Assembly: GCA_021739765.1 (NCBI GenBank)
Contig: JAIPBD010000006.1
Span: 62,001 to 126,000, forward strand
Reading direction: 5' to 3'
Source: Melioribacteraceae bacterium
Lineage (GTDB): Bacteria; Bacteroidota; Ignavibacteria; Ignavibacteriales; Melioribacteraceae
DNA length: 64,000 bases
Shown here piece after piece: positions 8,262 to 15,351 of this stretch (position 1 is the stretch's first letter; each line of letters opens with the position of its first letter). The notes under the pieces were generated by a model. The model searched no databases. It was given only the letters and a program-made list of their open reading frames with translations, and was not told the DNA's origin. The position numbers were made by a program, and so were the translations under genes.

Positions 8262-9641
8262 CTAAAATCCTTCTTCACTGATAATATAAGCCAGCAGCGT
8301 AATTGCTGCAGTGCCGAGTTGCATTTCTCTCGGATGAACTTCGGTCCAAATGTCATTTTCAGAATGATGATAATCAAAGTACCTTTGCATATCGGGAACG
8401 AATCCGATGAGGGCTTGGGCATTTTTTATTCTGCCAATATCCGCACCACTTCCACCGGGTCTAACCCAATCGATCAAAGTTTTGTTAAGGATCGGCAACC
8501 AGGATTTCATTTTGAGTATTTTTGAAGAATCAGCGGTAGTTGAGAACCCGCGGGGAGTAAAAGCGCCCCTATCTGATTCAATCGCGGCAACATGAATTTC
8601 ATCTGAATTTGCGGCATATTCGCCATATTTTAATCCACCTCTTAAACCGTTTTCTTCATTCGCGAACAAAACACAGCGAATTGTCCTTTTCGGTTTGAGC
8701 CTTAATCTTTTCATGAGTTCAACTACTTCCATTGTTTGAATGGAAGGAGCGCCGTCATCATGCGCTCCATCGCCTTTATCCCATGCGTCGAAATGTCCGC
8801 CGGCTACAATAATTTCATTTGGGAACTCGGAACCTTTTATCTCCCCTATCACATTGAAAGATTCTTTGTCCGGTAAATTAATCGCGGAAGATTTTAGCGT
8901 TATTTTTAGATTTGGTTCGGTTCTAAGTGCTTGGCTTAAGAATTCGGCGCCAACAAGACTGATCGCCATTGCCGGAACTTTATCGAGAGAATCGACATAA
9001 GCACTCATTGCGCCGACATGTGGTACATCGTCCATTCTGTGAGTTGCAGAGCGTACCAGAGCGGCAACTCCACCGACTTTAGCGGCTTCGATTGCTCCTT
9101 GTGATCTTGGTTGCACGGCGATACCGTAACCTTTAAAAGTATTTACATGTTGATCTTCCCAGGGTTTATTGAAGAAGATTATTTTACCCTTTGCTTCATT
9201 TTTCCTCTCTTGCAACTCCTCAAAAGAGCGAACTTCCAAAATTTCGGCGGTTATTCCATCGGAATCAGTACCAACACTTCTTCCTAATGATGCAACATTC
9301 AGTTTTTTGTTGAGATGATCGGAGGAGCTTGAAATTTCACATTCTTCAATTTTTCCTCGCTCCCAATGTGGAACCATCACCGGCTGCATCCAAACTGAAT
9401 CGAAATTCCATTCAATCATTTTTTGCTTCGCCCATTCCATTGCATCATACGAGCTTTCGGAAGCAGATAATCTCGAACCAAGGGCGGAAAGTTCAGGTAA
9501 TAATCTAAATCCTTTTTGTTCTGTTAAAGAAGCAGAAATGATGGAGTCGGCAATCGAATTATAATGATCGTATGAGTGTGCTTTGAAATCTTGTGCAAAA
9601 CTGACAGATGTTAATAGGAAAAGTAGAAGAAGTGTTTTCAT
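8262..9641 (-). CDS. Secreted M28-family zinc aminopeptidase/carboxypeptidase (PGCP-like)
   Basis: 459 residues. The ATG at 9641 is preferred because AGGA lies 7 nt upstream and falls inside the alternative start at 9653. A signal peptide (MKTLLLLFLLTSVSFAQ) leads to an M28 exopeptidase with a PA-domain insert (about residues 120-240). Metal and catalytic motifs in order are AGGHFDAWDKGDGAHDDG (His and bridging Asp), FANEENGLRG (catalytic Glu and zinc Glu) and a late YHHSEND (His ligand). Closest in architecture to carboxypeptidase Q/PGCP and bacterial periplasmic M28 enzymes, which release amino acids from peptides. It appears monocistronic. The integrated element begins about 40 nt beyond its start, so its promoter region abuts the left junction. 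Confidence 0.85.
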   Translation of the reverse strand: MKTLLLLFLLTSVSFAQDFKAHSYDHYNSIADSIISASLTEQKGFRLLPELSALGSRLSASESSYDAMEWAKQKMIEWNFDSVWMQPVMVPHWERGKIEECEISSSSDHLNKKLNVASLGRSVGTDSDGITAEILEVRSFEELQERKNEAKGKIIFFNKPWEDQHVNTFKGYGIAVQPRSQGAIEAAKVGGVAALVRSATHRMDDVPHVGAMSAYVDSLDKVPAMAISLVGAEFLSQALRTEPNLKITLKSSAINLPDKESFNVIGEIKGSEFPNEIIVAGGHFDAWDKGDGAHDDGAPSIQTMEVVELMKRLRLKPKRTIRCVLFANEENGLRGGLKYGEYAANSDEIHVAAIESDRGAFTPRGFSTTADSSKILKMKSWLPILNKTLIDWVRPGGSGADIGRIKNAQALIGFVPDMQRYFDYHHSENDIWTEVHPREMQLGTAAITLLAYIISEEGF

Positions 9642-9680
9642 CGAAATCCTCATAAATTGAGGACGAAGTTAACTAATGCG

Positions 9681-9699
9681 TTTAAAATAAAAAAACCCG
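9681..9699 (+). repeat. Candidate left attachment site (attL)
   Basis: tttaaaataaaaaaacccg recurs at 15052-15070 in the same orientation with one mismatch (18 of 19). The copies flank the integrase and its companions exactly. It is also close to an inverted pair GAGGACG (9659-9665) / CGTCCTC (9698-9704). A-rich composition lowers the weight of the match. Confidence 0.4.
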
Positions 9700-9871: not shown

Positions 9872-10915
9872 ATGTCAGTTAAAATTCGCACAAAAATATT
9901 GAAAAATGGAAATTCCTCAATTTACCTTGATATCTATTATAAGGGTATCAGAAAATACGAATTTCTTGGTCTCAGTTACTCTAAAAATGATAAAAATAAA
10001 AAGCAAATAAAAGAAATTGCTGAAAAAATTAGAGCTAAAAAAGAACTCGAATTAGGCATAGTCAGATATGATATCGATACAAATCTTCTCAGTGATAAAC
10101 TAGTGATTGAATATTTTGATTCAAAGGCACTAGACAGGTCTACTAAATCCGCAAAATTAAAATTCCAATCTTTCTTAAAACAGAAACTCAAAAGGGATGA
10201 TATTCCCCTCAATAATGTTAGTGATTCACTTTGCGAGGAATATAAAGATTGGTTATTAAAACAAGAAGGACTTTCGCAAAATACTGCATCAATGTATTTC
10301 ACAAAGTTGAAAACGGTTCTAAATCAAGCAGTAAGGGAAAAACTGTTAAGCACAAATCCAGCGAAGTTTATTCGCATAAAAAATATTGGAAGTGAAAAAG
10401 TGTATTTAACTCTCGAGGAAGTGAGTCTTATTGAACAAACGGAAAGTAAGTATAGGGATGTGAAAGAAGCATTTTTATTTGGTTGTTATACTGGATTAAG
10501 AGTTAGTGATATAAAAAAACTCCGTTGGGAATATATAAAACAAAATAAATTGTTCTTTAGACAGGAAAAGACAAAAAATGTTGAATACCTTCCTCTAAAC
10601 AAAAATGCAATCAGAATACTCGAATTACAGAAATCAAAAAATAGAGAATCTGAATTTGTTTTTTATTTGGCAAAGAAAAGTGCAAATGTCAATACTGCAT
10701 TACGAAAATTTATAAAAAATACTGAAATTGATAAACATATAACATTTCATTCATCTCGACATACGTTTGCAACTCTCTGTTTAACTTGGGGAATGGATTT
10801 GTATAGTGTCAGTAAACTGTTGGGTCATAAATCAATTCAGAATACTCAGATTTACGCTCAGATCATAAATCAAAAGCTAGAACAGGAAGCAAATAAATTT
10901 CCAATAATTGAATAA
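9872..10915 (+). CDS. Tyrosine recombinase/integrase
   Basis: 347 residues. Three parts are seen: an N-terminal arm-type DNA-binding domain (about 1-75, beginning VKIRTKILKNGNSSIYLDIY, as in Bacteroidota element integrases), a SAM-like core-binding domain (about 85-180) and a catalytic domain (about 185-347). Catalytic residues are visible: Arg in CYTGLRVSDIKKL (near 210), HSSRHTFAT (near 293-301), LGHKSIQNTQ (second His) and the nucleophile Tyr in IYAQI (near 328). Nothing is missing, so the enzyme should be active in integration and excision of the surrounding element. It is the first gene inside the left junction, the typical position. The next gene starts 8 nt downstream. Confidence 0.92.
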   Translation: MSVKIRTKILKNGNSSIYLDIYYKGIRKYEFLGLSYSKNDKNKKQIKEIAEKIRAKKELELGIVRYDIDTNLLSDKLVIEYFDSKALDRSTKSAKLKFQSFLKQKLKRDDIPLNNVSDSLCEEYKDWLLKQEGLSQNTASMYFTKLKTVLNQAVREKLLSTNPAKFIRIKNIGSEKVYLTLEEVSLIEQTESKYRDVKEAFLFGCYTGLRVSDIKKLRWEYIKQNKLFFRQEKTKNVEYLPLNKNAIRILELQKSKNRESEFVFYLAKKSANVNTALRKFIKNTEIDKHITFHSSRHTFATLCLTWGMDLYSVSKLLGHKSIQNTQIYAQIINQKLEQEANKFPIIE

Positions 10916-10923
10916 TAGTAAGT

Positions 10924-11715
10924 ATGGAAAAATCCCAAGATCACTTAAATCAGCTCAAAAGATCTATTGCAAAAATGGAAGAATATGATAAAAAAGAACT
11001 ATATGAAAAATTAGAAATCGAATTCAATGACCATATTGAGGTTTATAAGAATAGTGATCCCATAAAAAAGAAATCAAGGTTAATTAATTGGCACAAATTA
11101 CAAGAATGCATTTATATAGAGATTGTAAATCTTTGGGAAAAGTTCGCTATTCCTAAAGCTATTGAAGGTTATCAAGAATTTATAAATCTATATTCTTCAC
11201 AAACTCTTACTAATATAAAATTTAGATTGTTCTACGTTCTATTTAATTATTTGAATGATCTGATAGACAAAAACACTTCAAATGAAGACATTAAAAAACA
11301 AATTGATGGTTTTATACCATTCTTTACTTATGATGCCTTCAGGGTGTTCGATTTACAATTTGCGCTAACTTCCTTGAATGAGAACAGTAACGAAAAAGTA
11401 ATTTTTCAAAAAATAGAGGACATGAAAAGAAGTGAAAAAAAACTTAGTAAATTTGAAGGAAAAGCAATTCCTAAATACAAGCTAGATGGATATGAATCCA
11501 TATTCAAAAAGAATGATAAGTATAGAGAAGATTATGGCAAGGATAATTTTAGATCAATAGCATTTTCAGTTGCATACAAAGAATTAAATTTAATACATAC
11601 AAAAGAAAAGCAGAACTTTTATAAGAACTTTTTGTACTTCAAAAACTCACATCAAATAAAGAATCATAAAGAATTCGAAAATTTTGTCTCAATTACGAAA
11701 TCGGACAATATGTAA
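10924..11715 (+). CDS. Unrecognised helical protein of the integrated element
   Basis: 263 residues, not recognised. It is rich in Lys, Glu, Asn and Ile, predicted nearly all helical, with no signal peptide or membrane helix. Coiled-coil-like stretches occur at about 1-45 and 155-180. It follows the integrase by 8 nt, so the two are probably co-transcribed. Position between integrase and excisionase suggests a directionality, regulatory or replication accessory role, but nothing in the sequence proves it. No good SD is visible before the ATG; translation may be coupled to the integrase. Confidence 0.6.
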   Translation: MEKSQDHLNQLKRSIAKMEEYDKKELYEKLEIEFNDHIEVYKNSDPIKKKSRLINWHKLQECIYIEIVNLWEKFAIPKAIEGYQEFINLYSSQTLTNIKFRLFYVLFNYLNDLIDKNTSNEDIKKQIDGFIPFFTYDAFRVFDLQFALTSLNENSNEKVIFQKIEDMKRSEKKLSKFEGKAIPKYKLDGYESIFKKNDKYREDYGKDNFRSIAFSVAYKELNLIHTKEKQNFYKNFLYFKNSHQIKNHKEFENFVSITKSDNM

Positions 11716-11784: not shown

Positions 11785-12102
11785 ATGAAGTTACCCAGTC
11801 TTACAAAACTTTATCAAAAATTAGAAGAAATTGAAAAGGTTGTTAAGTATCGGAATATTACATTCATCGATATTGATCAAGCCTCCTTATTACTGCAACT
11901 AAAAAAATCATACCTATATCAGTTAGTCCACAAAAATCAACTTCCATACTACAAACCCAATGGAAAGAAGATTTATTTCAACAAAGCCGAACTAAATGAA
12001 TGGATAAATAACTCAAAAATTCATTCTGTTGATGAAATCGAAAACGATTTTATCAACGGACATTTATTAAACAAAAATAACCGGGTGAGTCAAGGCTATT
12101 AA
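11785..12102 (+). CDS. Excisionase-like helix-turn-helix DNA-binding protein
   Basis: 105 residues. Residues about 30-78 match the HTH_17/excisionase winged-helix pattern: DIDQASLLLQLKKSYLYQLVHKNQLPYYKPNGKKIYFNKAELNEWI, where the 'YLYQLV' helix and the K-x-x-Y-F-N-K-x-E-L wing are typical. This family either acts as Xis (recombination directionality) or represses or activates nearby element genes. It has a strong SD (AAGGAGA) buried in a leader hairpin, and its 3' end overlaps the 5' arm of a terminator, so dose is probably controlled tightly. Small size, HTH and position between integrase and Rep support an Xis or copy-control role; which one is not decidable from sequence. Confidence 0.8.
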   Translation: MKLPSLTKLYQKLEEIEKVVKYRNITFIDIDQASLLLQLKKSYLYQLVHKNQLPYYKPNGKKIYFNKAELNEWINNSKIHSVDEIENDFINGHLLNKNNRVSQGY

Positions 12103-12202: not shown

Positions 12203-13162
12203 ATGAAGATTACCGAATTAGAAAAGCTTAAGAAAAGAATTAGACGTAAAAATGATTCTTACATAATAGCCTTAGACATGCTTAAAAAATTCAATGAGGT
12301 AGGTCTCAAAGACGGTAGATTAAAAAAGAAAATAGAAAGACAGCTAAACTGTTGCTCATTTTTAGAAGTGTACTCAAATGACGAAACCAGAACTTGGTTC
12401 TGTGGACAAAAAACATGCAGGCTTTGTAATTCAATTAGAATGGCAAAATTATTGGGAGTCTATAAAGAACAGGTCGAAAAATATCAGTTCAACTATCATT
12501 TATCACTAACCATGGAAAACCTTTATTGTAAATCGGAAAAGGATGAGCATGGAGTTTATTCACTAAACTACAAAAATGAAGAAATGACAATTTCAAAAAG
12601 AATAGATGAGATGTTCAAATTCTGGCACAACTCTATGCTATGTAAACTAGATATTTATAAGAAATTGACAAAAGAAGTGAATTTCATTCGGTCATGGGAA
12701 GTAACATTTAATAGAGTAAATTCAGTTCACCCGCATTTCCATTTATTACTGGTATCGAATAACGAGGATTCAATAAAAACGCTTGGAAATCTAATTATCA
12801 TTTATTGGATTAAATGGTGGGAGAGAAGAAAAGTAAGATGTGTAAATGAAGCTCAGAAATTAGAACCCATAAGAAAAACAATATTAGAGAATTTCAAATA
12901 CTGTCTGAAATTATCGGATATTAAAAACAGCAATGCCTTAAAACTAATCGAATTATTAAGAGCAACCGATAGTAGAAGATTATTCACTCAAAAGGGATTT
13001 ATGTCTGAATCAAAGCTTGAAGATATTAATAAACGAAATATATCAGATATTGAAGAAGTAAAGAGAAATGTACTCGAAAGTGCTACGAAAATTCACAAAC
13101 TTCATTATTCGAATGAAATTGGTGGTTATTACTCTGAATCAACAGGTGAATGTTATATTTAG
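12203..13162 (+). CDS. Rolling-circle replication initiator (HUH endonuclease, Rep_1/pUB110-like)
   Basis: 319 residues with a good SD (GGGGGGA) before the ATG. A Cys-rich motif CGQKTCRLCNSIR (near 75) matches the RfCpkRlCplCqwrR motif of Rep_1 proteins. The metal-binding HUH motif is HPHFHLLL (about 176-183), after SWEVTFNRVNSV as in the pUB110 Rep family. The probable catalytic Tyr is in NFKYCLKLSD (near 233). Such proteins nick the double-strand origin and prime leading-strand synthesis, or act as relaxases. This indicates that the element replicates as a circle after excision or in a host on transfer. The length is normal and nothing is truncated. The origin itself was not located. Confidence 0.8.
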   Translation: MKITELEKLKKRIRRKNDSYIIALDMLKKFNEVGLKDGRLKKKIERQLNCCSFLEVYSNDETRTWFCGQKTCRLCNSIRMAKLLGVYKEQVEKYQFNYHLSLTMENLYCKSEKDEHGVYSLNYKNEEMTISKRIDEMFKFWHNSMLCKLDIYKKLTKEVNFIRSWEVTFNRVNSVHPHFHLLLVSNNEDSIKTLGNLIIIYWIKWWERRKVRCVNEAQKLEPIRKTILENFKYCLKLSDIKNSNALKLIELLRATDSRRLFTQKGFMSESKLEDINKRNISDIEEVKRNVLESATKIHKLHYSNEIGGYYSESTGECYI

Positions 13163-13198: not shown

Positions 13199-14326
13199 AT
13201 GAAAATAAAGAACTATAAAACCATTCAAGAACCCTATATGGATTTCTATTTTAACGAAATTGTATTTGGAAACCTTAATCTCATCGTAGGGTTTTCTAGT
13301 TCAGGTAAAACTAGGTTGCTGAATACCCTTTTTAATTTAGGTGTTTCTGTATCTAGGTCTGAAATTACGCATAGAGGAAATTGGGATTTAGTATTCACCA
13401 TCAAAGAAAAAACTTATTCATACAAAATTAAGGCTGAAGATATAGAGCAAGGCAAACCAAAAATTGCGAGTGAAGAACTAAAAGATCTAAGTGCAAATAA
13501 AATGTTGATTCAAAGACAATCTGGGAAGTTTTTATTTAATGGTGAAAAAATGCCCGAATTAAAGGAAAATGAATCAGGCATTTCAATTTTACAAAACGAA
13601 CCTGAAATAAGACCAATCTATCAATCTTTTCAATCTATTATTAAGAGGAACTTTTCTACTGGCGATAAAAATTATGCTGAAATGTTGGCACCAGAAATGA
13701 TTAACCATAATGTTTCAAATTTAATTAAGAGTGAATATTTTAAGATGCAAGACATTCACAAATTTAGAACAAGTCTCAATATTGCTCTATATGCCCTTAA
13801 GATAAAGTTTCCAGTTAAATTTATGCAATTCAAGAATTTCCTTTTGGATCTCTTTGATTCATTTATAGATTTAGACATTAAGGATATTTCTGAAATAGTT
13901 GAGGATAGTAAAAATTTTGATGCACCAATCTTGTGTATTAAGGAGAAGGGTATTGATAAATGGATCCCAATCTACGAACTCTCATCAGGAATGCAGAAAG
14001 TGATCATTATTATGACCGATGTTCTTACAACCGGAGAAAATTGGATTTATCTAATTGATGAGTATGAAAATTCACTCGGTCCTAGAATTATGGATTTTCT
14101 TTTCGATTGGATTGATTTCACTGAAACAAATATTCAATTAATAATCACTACACACCACCCATACATAATCAATAAAATTCCTCAATCAAACTGGTACTTG
14201 TGCACAAGAAATGGAAAAGAAGTTAAATTTTATTATGGTGAAGAGTTAGAAAAAATAATAGGGAAGTCGCATCATTCTTCCTTTAATAAACTTTTAAATA
14301 ACAGTCTATACGGCAAAAAATTTTGA
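13199..14326 (+). CDS. AAA/ABC-type ATPase (OLD-like) of an ATPase-TOPRIM pair
   Basis: 375 residues. Walker A is GFSSSGKT (about 31-38); an ABC-like signature ELSSGMQKV is near 261-269; Walker B is WIYLIDEYEN (about 281-290); the H-loop is LIITTHHPYI (near 313-322). This is the AAA_15/AAA_21 (OLD/RecF-like) ATPase layout, with an insert of about 150 residues between Walker A and the signature. No nuclease domain is fused; the TOPRIM-like partner is encoded by the next gene with a 1-nt overlap. In known two-gene systems such as PARIS (AriA) and RloA-type modules, the ATPase senses phage proteins or DNA ends and controls the effector. A defensive role here is inferred from architecture and cargo position. 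Confidence 0.75.
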   Translation: MKIKNYKTIQEPYMDFYFNEIVFGNLNLIVGFSSSGKTRLLNTLFNLGVSVSRSEITHRGNWDLVFTIKEKTYSYKIKAEDIEQGKPKIASEELKDLSANKMLIQRQSGKFLFNGEKMPELKENESGISILQNEPEIRPIYQSFQSIIKRNFSTGDKNYAEMLAPEMINHNVSNLIKSEYFKMQDIHKFRTSLNIALYALKIKFPVKFMQFKNFLLDLFDSFIDLDIKDISEIVEDSKNFDAPILCIKEKGIDKWIPIYELSSGMQKVIIIMTDVLTTGENWIYLIDEYENSLGPRIMDFLFDWIDFTETNIQLIITTHHPYIINKIPQSNWYLCTRNGKEVKFYYGEELEKIIGKSHHSSFNKLLNNSLYGKKF

Positions 14327-14982
14327 TGAATATTTACTTCCTAGTCGAAGGCAAGAGTACCGAACCATTAATTTACAAGAATTGGATTCGTTTCGTTAAT
14401 TCAGAGTTTAAAATTGTAAATAAACTCGAAGAGGTAGAAGATAACACAGTTTTTATATTTTCTAGTGGTGGATACCCATCCTACCTTGCTGATATCCGAG
14501 CAGCAGCAGAAGATATTAAAGAATTTAATAAATTTGATCTGCTTGTAGTCGGAGTTGATTCAGAAGACATGAGTTATGAAGAAAAATATGAAGAGATTGA
14601 TAATGAGATAAAAAAAAATAATCTACAAATAGATTATAAAATACTAGTACAACATTTTTGCATTGAAACTTGGGCACTTGGAAATAGAAAATTTTACAAG
14701 CGTGCGCCAGAGAGTAAAACTCTCTTAAACTTTCAAAAAATATTTAATGTAGCTTCTAAAGACCCAGAACTGCTTCCCCCTTATGAAAGTTACAATAGAT
14801 CACAATTTGCAGAAAAGTATCTTAAAGCTATGATTCGAGAAAGAAATAGTAGACTTTTTTATAAAAAAACAAATCCACATGTAATAGCTGATGAAAGTTA
14901 TTTCAGTTCGTTAATAGATAGATATGAGAAAACAGATCATATCAAGAGTTTTGGAGAATTTGTCAAAATTTTTAAGAAATGA
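14326..14982 (+). CDS. TOPRIM/RloB-like effector partner of the ATPase
   Basis: 218 residues from the ATG at 14326, which overlaps the ATPase stop (TGATG). A TTG one codon upstream is a possible but weaker start. The N-terminus NIYFLVEGKSTEP carries the glutamate of a TOPRIM-like motif 1, and LLVVGVDSEDMSYE (about 70-83) the acidic Asp/Glu motif 2. HFCIETWALGNRKFYKR resembles the F-x-x-E-x-W-L segment of RloB/DUF4276-type proteins. TOPRIM effectors in OLD, Gabija and PARIS cut DNA or tRNA. Translational coupling (no SD visible) suggests fixed stoichiometry with the ATPase. The family call is moderate, and the nuclease activity is inferred. Confidence 0.6.
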   Translation: MNIYFLVEGKSTEPLIYKNWIRFVNSEFKIVNKLEEVEDNTVFIFSSGGYPSYLADIRAAAEDIKEFNKFDLLVVGVDSEDMSYEEKYEEIDNEIKKNNLQIDYKILVQHFCIETWALGNRKFYKRAPESKTLLNFQKIFNVASKDPELLPPYESYNRSQFAEKYLKAMIRERNSRLFYKKTNPHVIADESYFSSLIDRYEKTDHIKSFGEFVKIFKK

Positions 14983-15051: not shown

Positions 15052-15070
15052 TTTAAAATAAAAAAGCCCG
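15052..15070 (+). repeat. Candidate right attachment site (attR)
   Basis: tttaaaataaaaaagcccg, one mismatch from 9681-9699. It covers the T tract and outer arm of the rpmB terminator, so the element may have integrated into that terminator while keeping it working. A perfect AGGTCT/AGACCT palindrome (15028-15040) lies just inside, a possible integrase arm site. Confidence 0.4.
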
Positions 15071-15111: not shown

Positions 15112-15351
15112 TTATCTGACTTTAATAGCACCTGCCTGAATTTGTTTTGCAAGTTCAGCGGTTCCATTCTTTGAAATAGTTCTTAGAGCTCGTGCACTAA
15201 TTTTAACAGTAACGTACTTATTCAATTCTTGAACCCAAATTCGCTTTTTATGCAAGTTTGGAAGAAATCTTCGTTTCGTTTTATTATGAGCATGCGAAAT
15301 ATTACTACCGCTTATCGGTCTCTTTCCAGATAGTTGGCAAACTCTCGACAT
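15112..15351 (-). CDS. rpmB: 50S ribosomal protein bL28
   Basis: 79 residues, full length. SRVCQLSGKRPISGSNISHAHNKTKRRFLPNL is diagnostic of bL28 in the large ribosomal subunit. A clear SD (AGGAG) precedes the ATG at 15351. The family's zinc-binding cysteines are reduced to one (Cys5), the common zinc-free form. Its terminator is the probable integration target of the neighbouring element. The upstream gene on the same strand is ferritin, 74 nt away. Confidence 0.97.
   Translation of the reverse strand: MSRVCQLSGKRPISGSNISHAHNKTKRRFLPNLHKKRIWVQELNKYVTVKISARALRTISKNGTAELAKQIQAGAIKVR

What the first reader, a model, noticed from the sequence alone, without database searches (positions are those of the whole stretch)
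13199..14982. ATPase + TOPRIM/RloB-like pair in cargo position: candidate anti-phage system
The ATPase has Walker A GFSSSGKT, signature ELSSGMQKV, Walker B and a TTHHPYI H-loop without a fused nuclease. The partner has VEGK and VDSED TOPRIM-like motifs plus an RloB-like HFCIETW segment, and its start overlaps the ATPase stop. Two-gene ATPase/TOPRIM modules such as PARIS and Gabija defend by sensing phage. This pair does not match either by size or motif in an obvious way, so it may be a new branch.
Basis: partly seen in the sequence, partly recalled or inferred. Interest (0 to 1): 0.72.

Follow-up and report, generated by a model that had tools for sequence, protein, structure and literature searches.

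The report
Mobile ATPase–Toprim phage-defence candidate pair
A small integrated mobile element carries two coupled genes, a switch-like ATPase and a likely nuclease, that look like a separate branch of a known kind of bacterial anti-virus system.

Summary
The pair is real. Window 13199-14326 encodes a 375-aa ABC/SMC-type ATPase; 14326-14982 encodes a 218-aa protein whose ATG shares one base with the ATPase stop. The second protein's family has Toprim-like acidic residues and distant homology to RloB (profile-profile 97.1%; column-shuffled controls at most 0.4%). The pair ends a ~5.4-kb integrase/Rep_1 element inserted between rpmB and an M28 peptidase gene: 25 of 30 M28 loci from the family show rpmB 58-171 bp away, and an 18/19 repeat marks the ends. 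Relatives occur in several phyla, with the ATPase upstream in 22 of 22 loci: small plasmids, a filamentous-phage-like replicon, and four P2-like prophages between gpA and the portal gene, a published antiviral hotspot. Their ATPases form one clade apart from RloB-linked (AbiL-type) and DUF4276-linked (HEC-01-type) ATPases. Verdict: a new variant of the known two-gene ATPase-Toprim defence kind; not PARIS or Gabija. Most likely the ATPase gates a Toprim nuclease that aborts infection.

The parts
13199..14326 (+). ABC/SMC-type (AAA_21) ATPase, 375 aa, presumed sensor/regulator of the pair
   Evidence: AAA_21 4.1e-16; four ATP-site motifs kept in 17 aligned rows; own clade 99/98
14326..14982 (+). 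Toprim-like RloB-related partner, 218 aa, presumed nuclease effector (TTG 14323 is an alternative in-frame start)
   Evidence: invariant E8/G9/E13/D78/C112/E114 and [DE]80 in 17 rows; family profile to RloB 97.1%, E 6.7e-11; start
9681..9699 (.). left 19-bp repeat, candidate att site
   Evidence: 18/19 match to the right copy, reached in 0 of 200 first-order Markov resamplings of the two boundary stretches
15052..15070 (.). right 19-bp repeat, candidate att site, at the 3' side of rpmB
   Evidence: sequence
9872..10915 (+). tyrosine recombinase (integrase) of the element
   Evidence: Phage_integrase 1.2e-25; phrog_1 4.7e-56
10924..11715 (+). element protein of unknown function, 263 aa
   Evidence: no Pfam, PADLOC or NCBIfam match; one weak PHROG match, E 0.18
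11785..12102 (+). excisionase-like HTH_17 protein
   Evidence: HTH_17 3.3e-12; excise 4.1e-11
12203..13162 (+). Rep_1-type replication protein
   Evidence: Rep_1 4.5e-12
8262..9653 (-). host M28 peptidase gene, left flank
   Evidence: Peptidase_M28 1.8e-16; next to rpmB in 25 of 30 M28 loci
15112..15351 (-). host rpmB (L28), right flank
   Evidence: Ribosomal_L28 1.2e-27

Best explanation
A two-gene phage-defence cassette carried as cargo by an integrative Rep_1 element. The ATPase (probably an oligomer with ABC-type ATP sites) holds or gates the small Toprim-like protein. A phage-made signal changes the ATPase state and frees or activates the partner, which cuts nucleic acid (tRNA or other RNA, or DNA) through a metal site formed by E8, D78, [DE]80 and E114, stopping growth before phage release. 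It is a separate branch beside AbiL (ATPase + RloB) and HEC-01 (ATPase + DUF4276-type protein) and would work like PARIS. Shown here: two-gene unit, correlated divergence, distant RloB homology with the same acidic positions, mobile cargo, prophage-hotspot location, separate ATPase clade. Inferred: defence, gating, Toprim fold and metal nuclease, abortive infection. Unknown: trigger and substrate.
For: Partner profile matches RloB (97.1%, E 6.7e-11) and DUF4276 (93.7%, E 1.9e-7); 30 column shuffles of each gave at most 0.4% and 0.8%, and the unrelated ATPase profile 0.4%. ATPase beside the partner in 22 of 22 loci and in 8 of 9 viral loci found by the ATPase (several are the same contigs as before). 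Distances of the two proteins correlate (Spearman 0.648; 0 of 5000 permutations as high; 15 pairs). P2-like contigs L021, L022 and L034 carry the pair between a Phage_GPA gene and a portal gene; so does E. coli 23CRST009 (identical to the L017 pair). The gpA-gpQ region is a published antiviral hotspot (PMC9122126, passages). Filamentous-phage-like pMsip02; DUF262 (Orf5/HEC-06-like) and type II R-M genes next to it in Planktothrix. AbiLii of F. nucleatum is toxic in E. coli (PMC3985639, passages); AriB is described as a two-metal Toprim tRNase held by AriA (PMC12409363, passages).
Against: The window partner alone has no significant Pfam match, nor do its close kin L009 and L010 hit RloB or DUF4276; 0 of 15 partners scanned with scores pass the RloB cut-off. 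The partner profile finds no solved structure and no structure could be predicted, so the Toprim fold is untested. By eye, several relatives lie among ordinary chromosomal genes with no obvious mobile gene nearby (L009, L011, L129, L130). I saw no phage assay for any member. For AbiL, the ATPase did not neutralise AbiLii toxicity (PMC3985639), so the gating step may differ.
Confidence: 0.68

Rival explanations
1. A toxin-antitoxin-like addiction module that keeps small plasmids, prophages and integrative elements in the cell; the ATPase restrains the Toprim-like toxin and phage defence is secondary.
For: Seven plasmid records carry it, four of them under 16 kb; phages and an integrative element; AbiLii of F. 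nucleatum is toxic in E. coli (PMC3985639, passages); AAA proteins paired with OLD-type Toprim proteins are reported as antitoxins in PMC10440598 (passages).
Against: The P2 gpA-gpQ locus is a hotspot of defence genes (PMC9122126), and an integrated P2 prophage should not need an addiction module (general knowledge). For PARIS, deletion of either gene was non-toxic, which its authors take to exclude a TA system (PMC9122126). Copies that look chromosomal exist (by eye).
Confidence: 0.17
2. An anti-plasmid or inter-element exclusion system: it acts against competing plasmids, conjugative elements or related phages rather than lytic phages.
For: It rides on competing small replicons and P2-like prophages; a P2-hotspot system can act against P2 itself (PMC9122126).
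Against: No direct evidence; the nearest characterised kin named in the papers seen (AbiL, PARIS) are described as phage systems.
Confidence: 0.1
3. Housekeeping of nucleic acids (repair, or replication of the carrier element); not defence.
For: The ATPase is SMC_N/RecF-like (SMC_N 2.5e-8, below Pfam's cut-off); Toprim proteins also act in replication and repair; in the window it lies next to a rep gene; one OLD-family class acts in the cell cycle (PMC12796447, start of abstract and passages).
Against: Very patchy: 5 of 395 genomes in the phylum sample; close DNA relatives of the L017 pair in 1 of 5426 E. coli genomes. Carriers have different replication genes (Rep_1, GPA, RepM, RepB).
Confidence: 0.05

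Closest known systems
AbiL (AbiLi ATPase + AbiLii/RloB-family protein)
   Same: Two genes, ATPase first; effector core homologous to RloB with the same EGxxTE, Dx[DE] and xExW positions.
   Different: 12 RloB-linked ATPases form another clade (100/100); three of them score 1.5e-81 to 7.5e-102 to AbiLi model PDLC02335, against 1.4e-23 at best for the 17 here. RloB's invariant histidine after xExW is an asparagine in 16 of 17 partners here, and the conserved C-terminal third lies outside the RloB alignment.
HEC-01 (HEC-01A ATPase + DUF4276-type protein)
   Same: Two genes, same order, related effector (hhalign 93.7%); one relative, L008, just passes the DUF4276 cut-off (30.6 against 30.2 bits).
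   Different: The one DUF4276-linked ATPase tested scores 1.7e-148 to HEC-01A; the 17 here score 5.8e-16 at best among the models shown (25 of 40 families listed); separate clade.
PARIS (AriA + AriB)
   Same: Separate ATPase and Toprim genes; prophage hotspot; AAA_21 ATPase; best solved relative of the ATPase profile is AriA, E 1.4e-7.
   Different: No DUF4435 match in any of 11 partners at E<=0.1; the AriA match covers only about 84 profile positions.
Gabija / OLD classes with fused Toprim
   Same: ABC ATPase plus Toprim-type partner.
   Different: Not fused; no helicase match among the element's proteins.

Membership tests
AbiL | AbiLi-type ATPase | tested here: not met
   PDLC02335 hits 17 of 17 but at 1.4e-23 at best, against 1.5e-81 to 7.5e-102 for three RloB-linked ATPases; separate clade. 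The tool gives no PADLOC cut-off, so this is relative.
AbiL | RloB-family effector above Pfam's cut-off | tested here: not met
   0 of 15 partners reach 31.5 bits; best 25.1 (L002).
HEC-01 | HEC-01A ATPase | tested here: not met
   5.8e-16 at best among models shown, against 1.7e-148 for a DUF4276-linked ATPase.
HEC-01 | HEC-01B / DUF4276 partner | tested here: inconclusive
   HEC-01B 3.6e-5 at best, the most-hit model in 4 of 11; DUF4276 cut-off passed by 1 of 15 partners (L008, 30.6 against 30.2 bits), not by the window.
RloB/DUF4276 Toprim-like superfamily | homologous core with EGxxxE, Dx[DE], xExW | tested here: met
   hhalign 97.1% and 93.7%, shuffled controls under 1%; residues in 17 of 17, the W in 16 of 17.
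PARIS | DUF4435 (AriB) partner | tested here: not met
   No hit in 11 partners at E<=0.1; definition from PMC9122126 passages.
Gabija | GajA fused ATPase-Toprim plus helicase GajB | tested here: not met
   ATPase ends without Toprim; none of the element's other proteins matches a helicase.
Two-gene ATPase-Toprim defence kind | ATPase and Toprim-like genes adjacent and coupled | tested here: met
   22 of 22 loci; correlated distances.
Two-gene ATPase-Toprim defence kind | protects from phage | not testable with these tools
   needs a plaque assay
Toprim nuclease | Toprim fold and metal-dependent cleavage | not testable with these tools
   structure prediction switched off; residue pattern only

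The most novel reading that the evidence does not exclude
A third ATPase-Toprim defence type beside AbiL and HEC-01, whose effector has a new target-recognition module: the conserved C-terminal third (P147-E148, Y165, Y179, K181, P184, R199), not matched by the RloB profile, which gives it a substrate (for example a specific tRNA) that no known Toprim effector cuts.
Probability: 0.3. Interest if true: 0.6.

Novelty: new variant of a known kind. Interest (0 to 1): 0.46.

Why it matters
It adds a well-bounded, mobile, multi-phylum branch to the ATPase-Toprim defence systems, one that the PADLOC 2023 models shown here describe only at superfamily level. The P2-hotspot copies, one of them in E. 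coli, make it directly testable in a laboratory host, and comparison with AriB would show how Toprim effectors choose their targets.

Tried and rejected
DUF4435 relatives for a direct comparison were not found: 0 of 80 genomes. HEC-01B gave 1 of 80, too few for an alignment. Scanning viral contigs for the Rep protein found no relative; the one other genome with it (G345) has, by eye, a transposase-like ORF beside it near a contig end and told nothing about cargo. Viral scans with the window partner alone, with L003 and with A2 gave nothing beyond.

Considered and rejected: PARIS and Gabija membership (membership test); chance (strict co-occurrence, conserved motifs); a match to a non-defence family (none seen).

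Rows left out. ATPase tree: 12 of 18 RloB loci and 15 of 18 DUF4276 loci were used, the rest truncated, broken, without a clear ATPase, or near duplicates; of the pair's own loci, truncated (L008, L015) and near-identical ones (for example L018, L019, L030-L033), the split second copy of L007 and the A. pittii plasmid L094 were left out. Profile comparison: 12 RloB and 13 DUF4276 partners. Distance correlation: the 15 pairs present in both alignments. Spacing: 17 junctions, entered by hand. Empty-site count: 25 of 30 loci with the M28 gene; of the other five one is the window, four had no L28 hit; gaps are extrapolated from alignment ends.

Papers. Passages found by word search only: PMC10568477, PMC3985639, PMC12796447 (also start of abstract), PMC9122126, PMC9519451, PMC12409363, PMC10440598, PMC12111858. 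All others: search listings only. The statement that I saw no paper on this branch rests alone, in an open-licence library without preprints. General Toprim, RloB and P2 biology not tied to a call is recalled.

Full report
What is there. Two genes on the + strand end a small mobile element. The ATPase (13199-14326, 375 aa) matches AAA_21 (E 4.1e-16) and, below its cut-off, SMC_N (E 2.5e-8). The partner starts at ATG 14326, sharing one base with the ATPase stop, and ends at 14982. On its own the partner has no significant Pfam match and only a weak PADLOC match, HEC-01B E 0.009.

The carrier. Upstream lie a tyrosine recombinase, an unknown protein, an excisionase-like HTH protein and a Rep_1 protein. 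The stretch from about 9.7 to 15 kb is more AT-rich than its surroundings. A 19-bp repeat with one mismatch lies at 9681-9699 and 15052-15070; comparing the two boundary stretches, 0 of 200 first-order Markov resamplings reach 18 of 19. In the same family of genomes the M28 peptidase and rpmB genes are neighbours: of the 30 best M28 loci (from 77 genomes searched), 25 show both genes in the same orientation, 58-171 bp apart (median 116), while the window has 5458 bp between them (of the other five, one is the window and four had no L28 hit). Subtracting the repeat spacing (5371) leaves 87 bp, inside that range. So the pair is cargo of an insertion of about 5.4 kb.

Relatives. tblastn found the partner in 7 plasmid records and 1 phage-collection record; genome contigs gave 3 and viral contigs 6. 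In the window's phylum 5 of 395 genomes match, the window's own included, and 2 of 80 in its family. Carriers named in records belong to Pseudomonadota, Bacteroidota and Cyanobacteriota and, by record title, to Desulfobacterales and Fibrobacteres.

Coupling. In 22 of 22 loci the ATPase lies directly upstream on the same strand (two loci are the window itself, L017-L019 are near-identical, and L008, L015 and L016 are cut by contig ends). In 17 measured junctions the spacing runs from -7 to +15 bases and is -4 in 10 of 17. In the other direction, the ATPase profile at E<=1e-20 found 6 of 395 genomes: five are the genomes with the partner, and the sixth (G140) has a distant ATPase beside another small protein with weak HEC-01B and DUF4276 hits. 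Of 9 viral loci found by the ATPase, 8 have the partner (most are contigs already found) and one (L036) has a DUF3226 protein instead. Distances between ATPases and between partners correlate (Spearman 0.648, 0 of 5000 permutations as high, 15 pairs).

Where it sits. Three P2-like viral contigs (L021, L022, L034) have the pair between a Phage_GPA gene and a portal gene (the L034 portal score is just under Pfam's cut-off, and the L022 GPA gene is cut by the contig end). The L017 pair is 100% identical to one in E. coli 23CRST009, where RefSeq annotates a replication endonuclease (marked incomplete) upstream and a phage portal gene downstream; by blastn this DNA is in 1 of 5426 E. coli genomes. 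PMC9122126 (passages) describes the region between gpA and the portal gpQ as a hotspot of antiviral systems. Other carriers: pMsip02 with Zot (2.1e-21), annotated capsid and integrase genes; plasmids of Acinetobacter, Proteus, Nostoc, Planktothrix and Bernardetia. In Planktothrix the neighbours are a DUF262 (Orf5/HEC-06-like) gene and a type II methyltransferase and restriction enzyme. Of 10 neighbour proteins that I picked from five stretches, 6 had PADLOC hits; this was neither random nor controlled. Against this, several copies lie, by eye, among ordinary chromosomal genes (L009, L011, L129, L130).

What the partner is. Of 11 members, 8 hit RloB (best 2.4e-5) and 6 hit DUF4276 (best 4.5e-7) at E<=0.1; 6 hit AbiLii (best 1.2e-7) and 4 the HEC-01B model PDLC04200 (best 3.6e-5). 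With scores, 0 of 15 partners reach the RloB cut-off (best 25.1 of 31.5 bits) and 1 of 15 (L008) just reaches the DUF4276 one (30.6 against 30.2 bits); the window and its kin L009 and L010 hit neither family. PADLOC's AbiLii and Pfam's RloB overlap: 12 of the 13 genomes with RloB also hit AbiLii. Profile-profile comparison gives RloB 97.1%, E 6.7e-11 over 131 columns and DUF4276 93.7%, E 1.9e-7; RloB against DUF4276 gives 90.0%. These E-values are for single comparisons; as controls, 30 column shuffles of each alignment gave at most 0.39% and 0.76%, and the ATPase profile 0.43%. E8, G9, E13, D78, C112 and E114 are invariant and position 80 is D or E in 17 of 17 rows; the matching RloB positions are E36/G37/E41, D94/D96 and E125/W127, and the RloB H131 position is N in 16 of 17 here. 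The C-terminal third, with invariant Y165, Y179, K181, P184 and R199, is outside the RloB alignment. The pattern is Toprim-like; the fold was not tested, and the partner profile finds no solved relative.

Which branch. An ATPase tree of 48 sequences puts the 19 of this pair in one clade (99/98), 12 RloB-linked ATPases in another (100/100), and 15 DUF4276-linked ones in a weaker group (93/83). In PADLOC three RloB-linked ATPases score 1.5e-81 to 7.5e-102 to AbiLi and one DUF4276-linked ATPase scores 1.7e-148 to HEC-01A. The 17 ATPases here score 1.4e-23 at best to AbiLi and 5.8e-16 at best to HEC-01A among the 25 of 40 families listed; for the window ATPase the list at E<=1e-8 tops at 1.4e-23. 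None of 11 partners hits DUF4435, the PARIS partner. Best solved relatives of the ATPase profile are AriA (1.4e-7) and retron Ec78 and Ec83 ATPases (2.1e-7, 2.6e-7). So it is a sister branch of AbiL and HEC-01 rather than a member of either by the ATPase tests; on the effector side the line to DUF4276 is not sharp.

How it probably works. In PARIS the AriA ATPase holds AriB; a phage protein frees it, and AriB acts as a two-metal Toprim tRNase (PMC12409363, passages). AbiLii of F. nucleatum is toxic in E. coli but was not neutralised by AbiLi (PMC3985639, passages). RloB is linked to OLD Toprim domains by HHpred in PMC10440598 (passages). By analogy the ATPase senses infection and gates a nuclease that stops the cell. 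Trigger, substrate and the abortive outcome are inference. The chief rival is an addiction module; the place in P2 prophages speaks against it but does not exclude it.

Novelty. Searches of the open-licence library showed me no paper describing this branch; that is a limited search, and newer defence databases than PADLOC 2.0.0 were not available. I rate it a new variant of a known kind.

Noticed in passing
window 10924-11715: A 263-aa element protein between integrase and excisionase matches nothing in Pfam, PADLOC or NCBIfam and has one weak PHROG match, E 0.18.
   Followed up: no
L007 6661-7886: The Proteus terrae plasmid holds two copies of the pair; in the second the ATPase is split between two frames beside an open partner gene.
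   Followed up: no
L094 3001-4853: An Acinetobacter pittii plasmid with a predicted OXA-72 carbapenemase gene also carries the pair, and an annotated YoeB/YefM toxin-antitoxin pair.
   Followed up: no
L028 1222-3007: A distant ATPase beside a different small protein (weak HEC-01B and DUF4276 hits) falls as sister to this clade on a long branch, perhaps another branch.
   Followed up: partly
L036 2818-4727: An ATPase related to this one is followed by a DUF3226 protein (2.2e-48) in a viral contig: another ATPase plus Toprim-like pairing.
   Followed up: no
L035 5920-7751: A divergent pair keeps E8, D78, C112 and E114 in the partner but not G9 and E13; likely the outer edge of the family.
   Followed up: partly
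window 12203-13162: The Rep_1 protein is rare: 2 of 395 genomes in the phylum sample, the window's own included, at E<=1e-8.
   Followed up: partly
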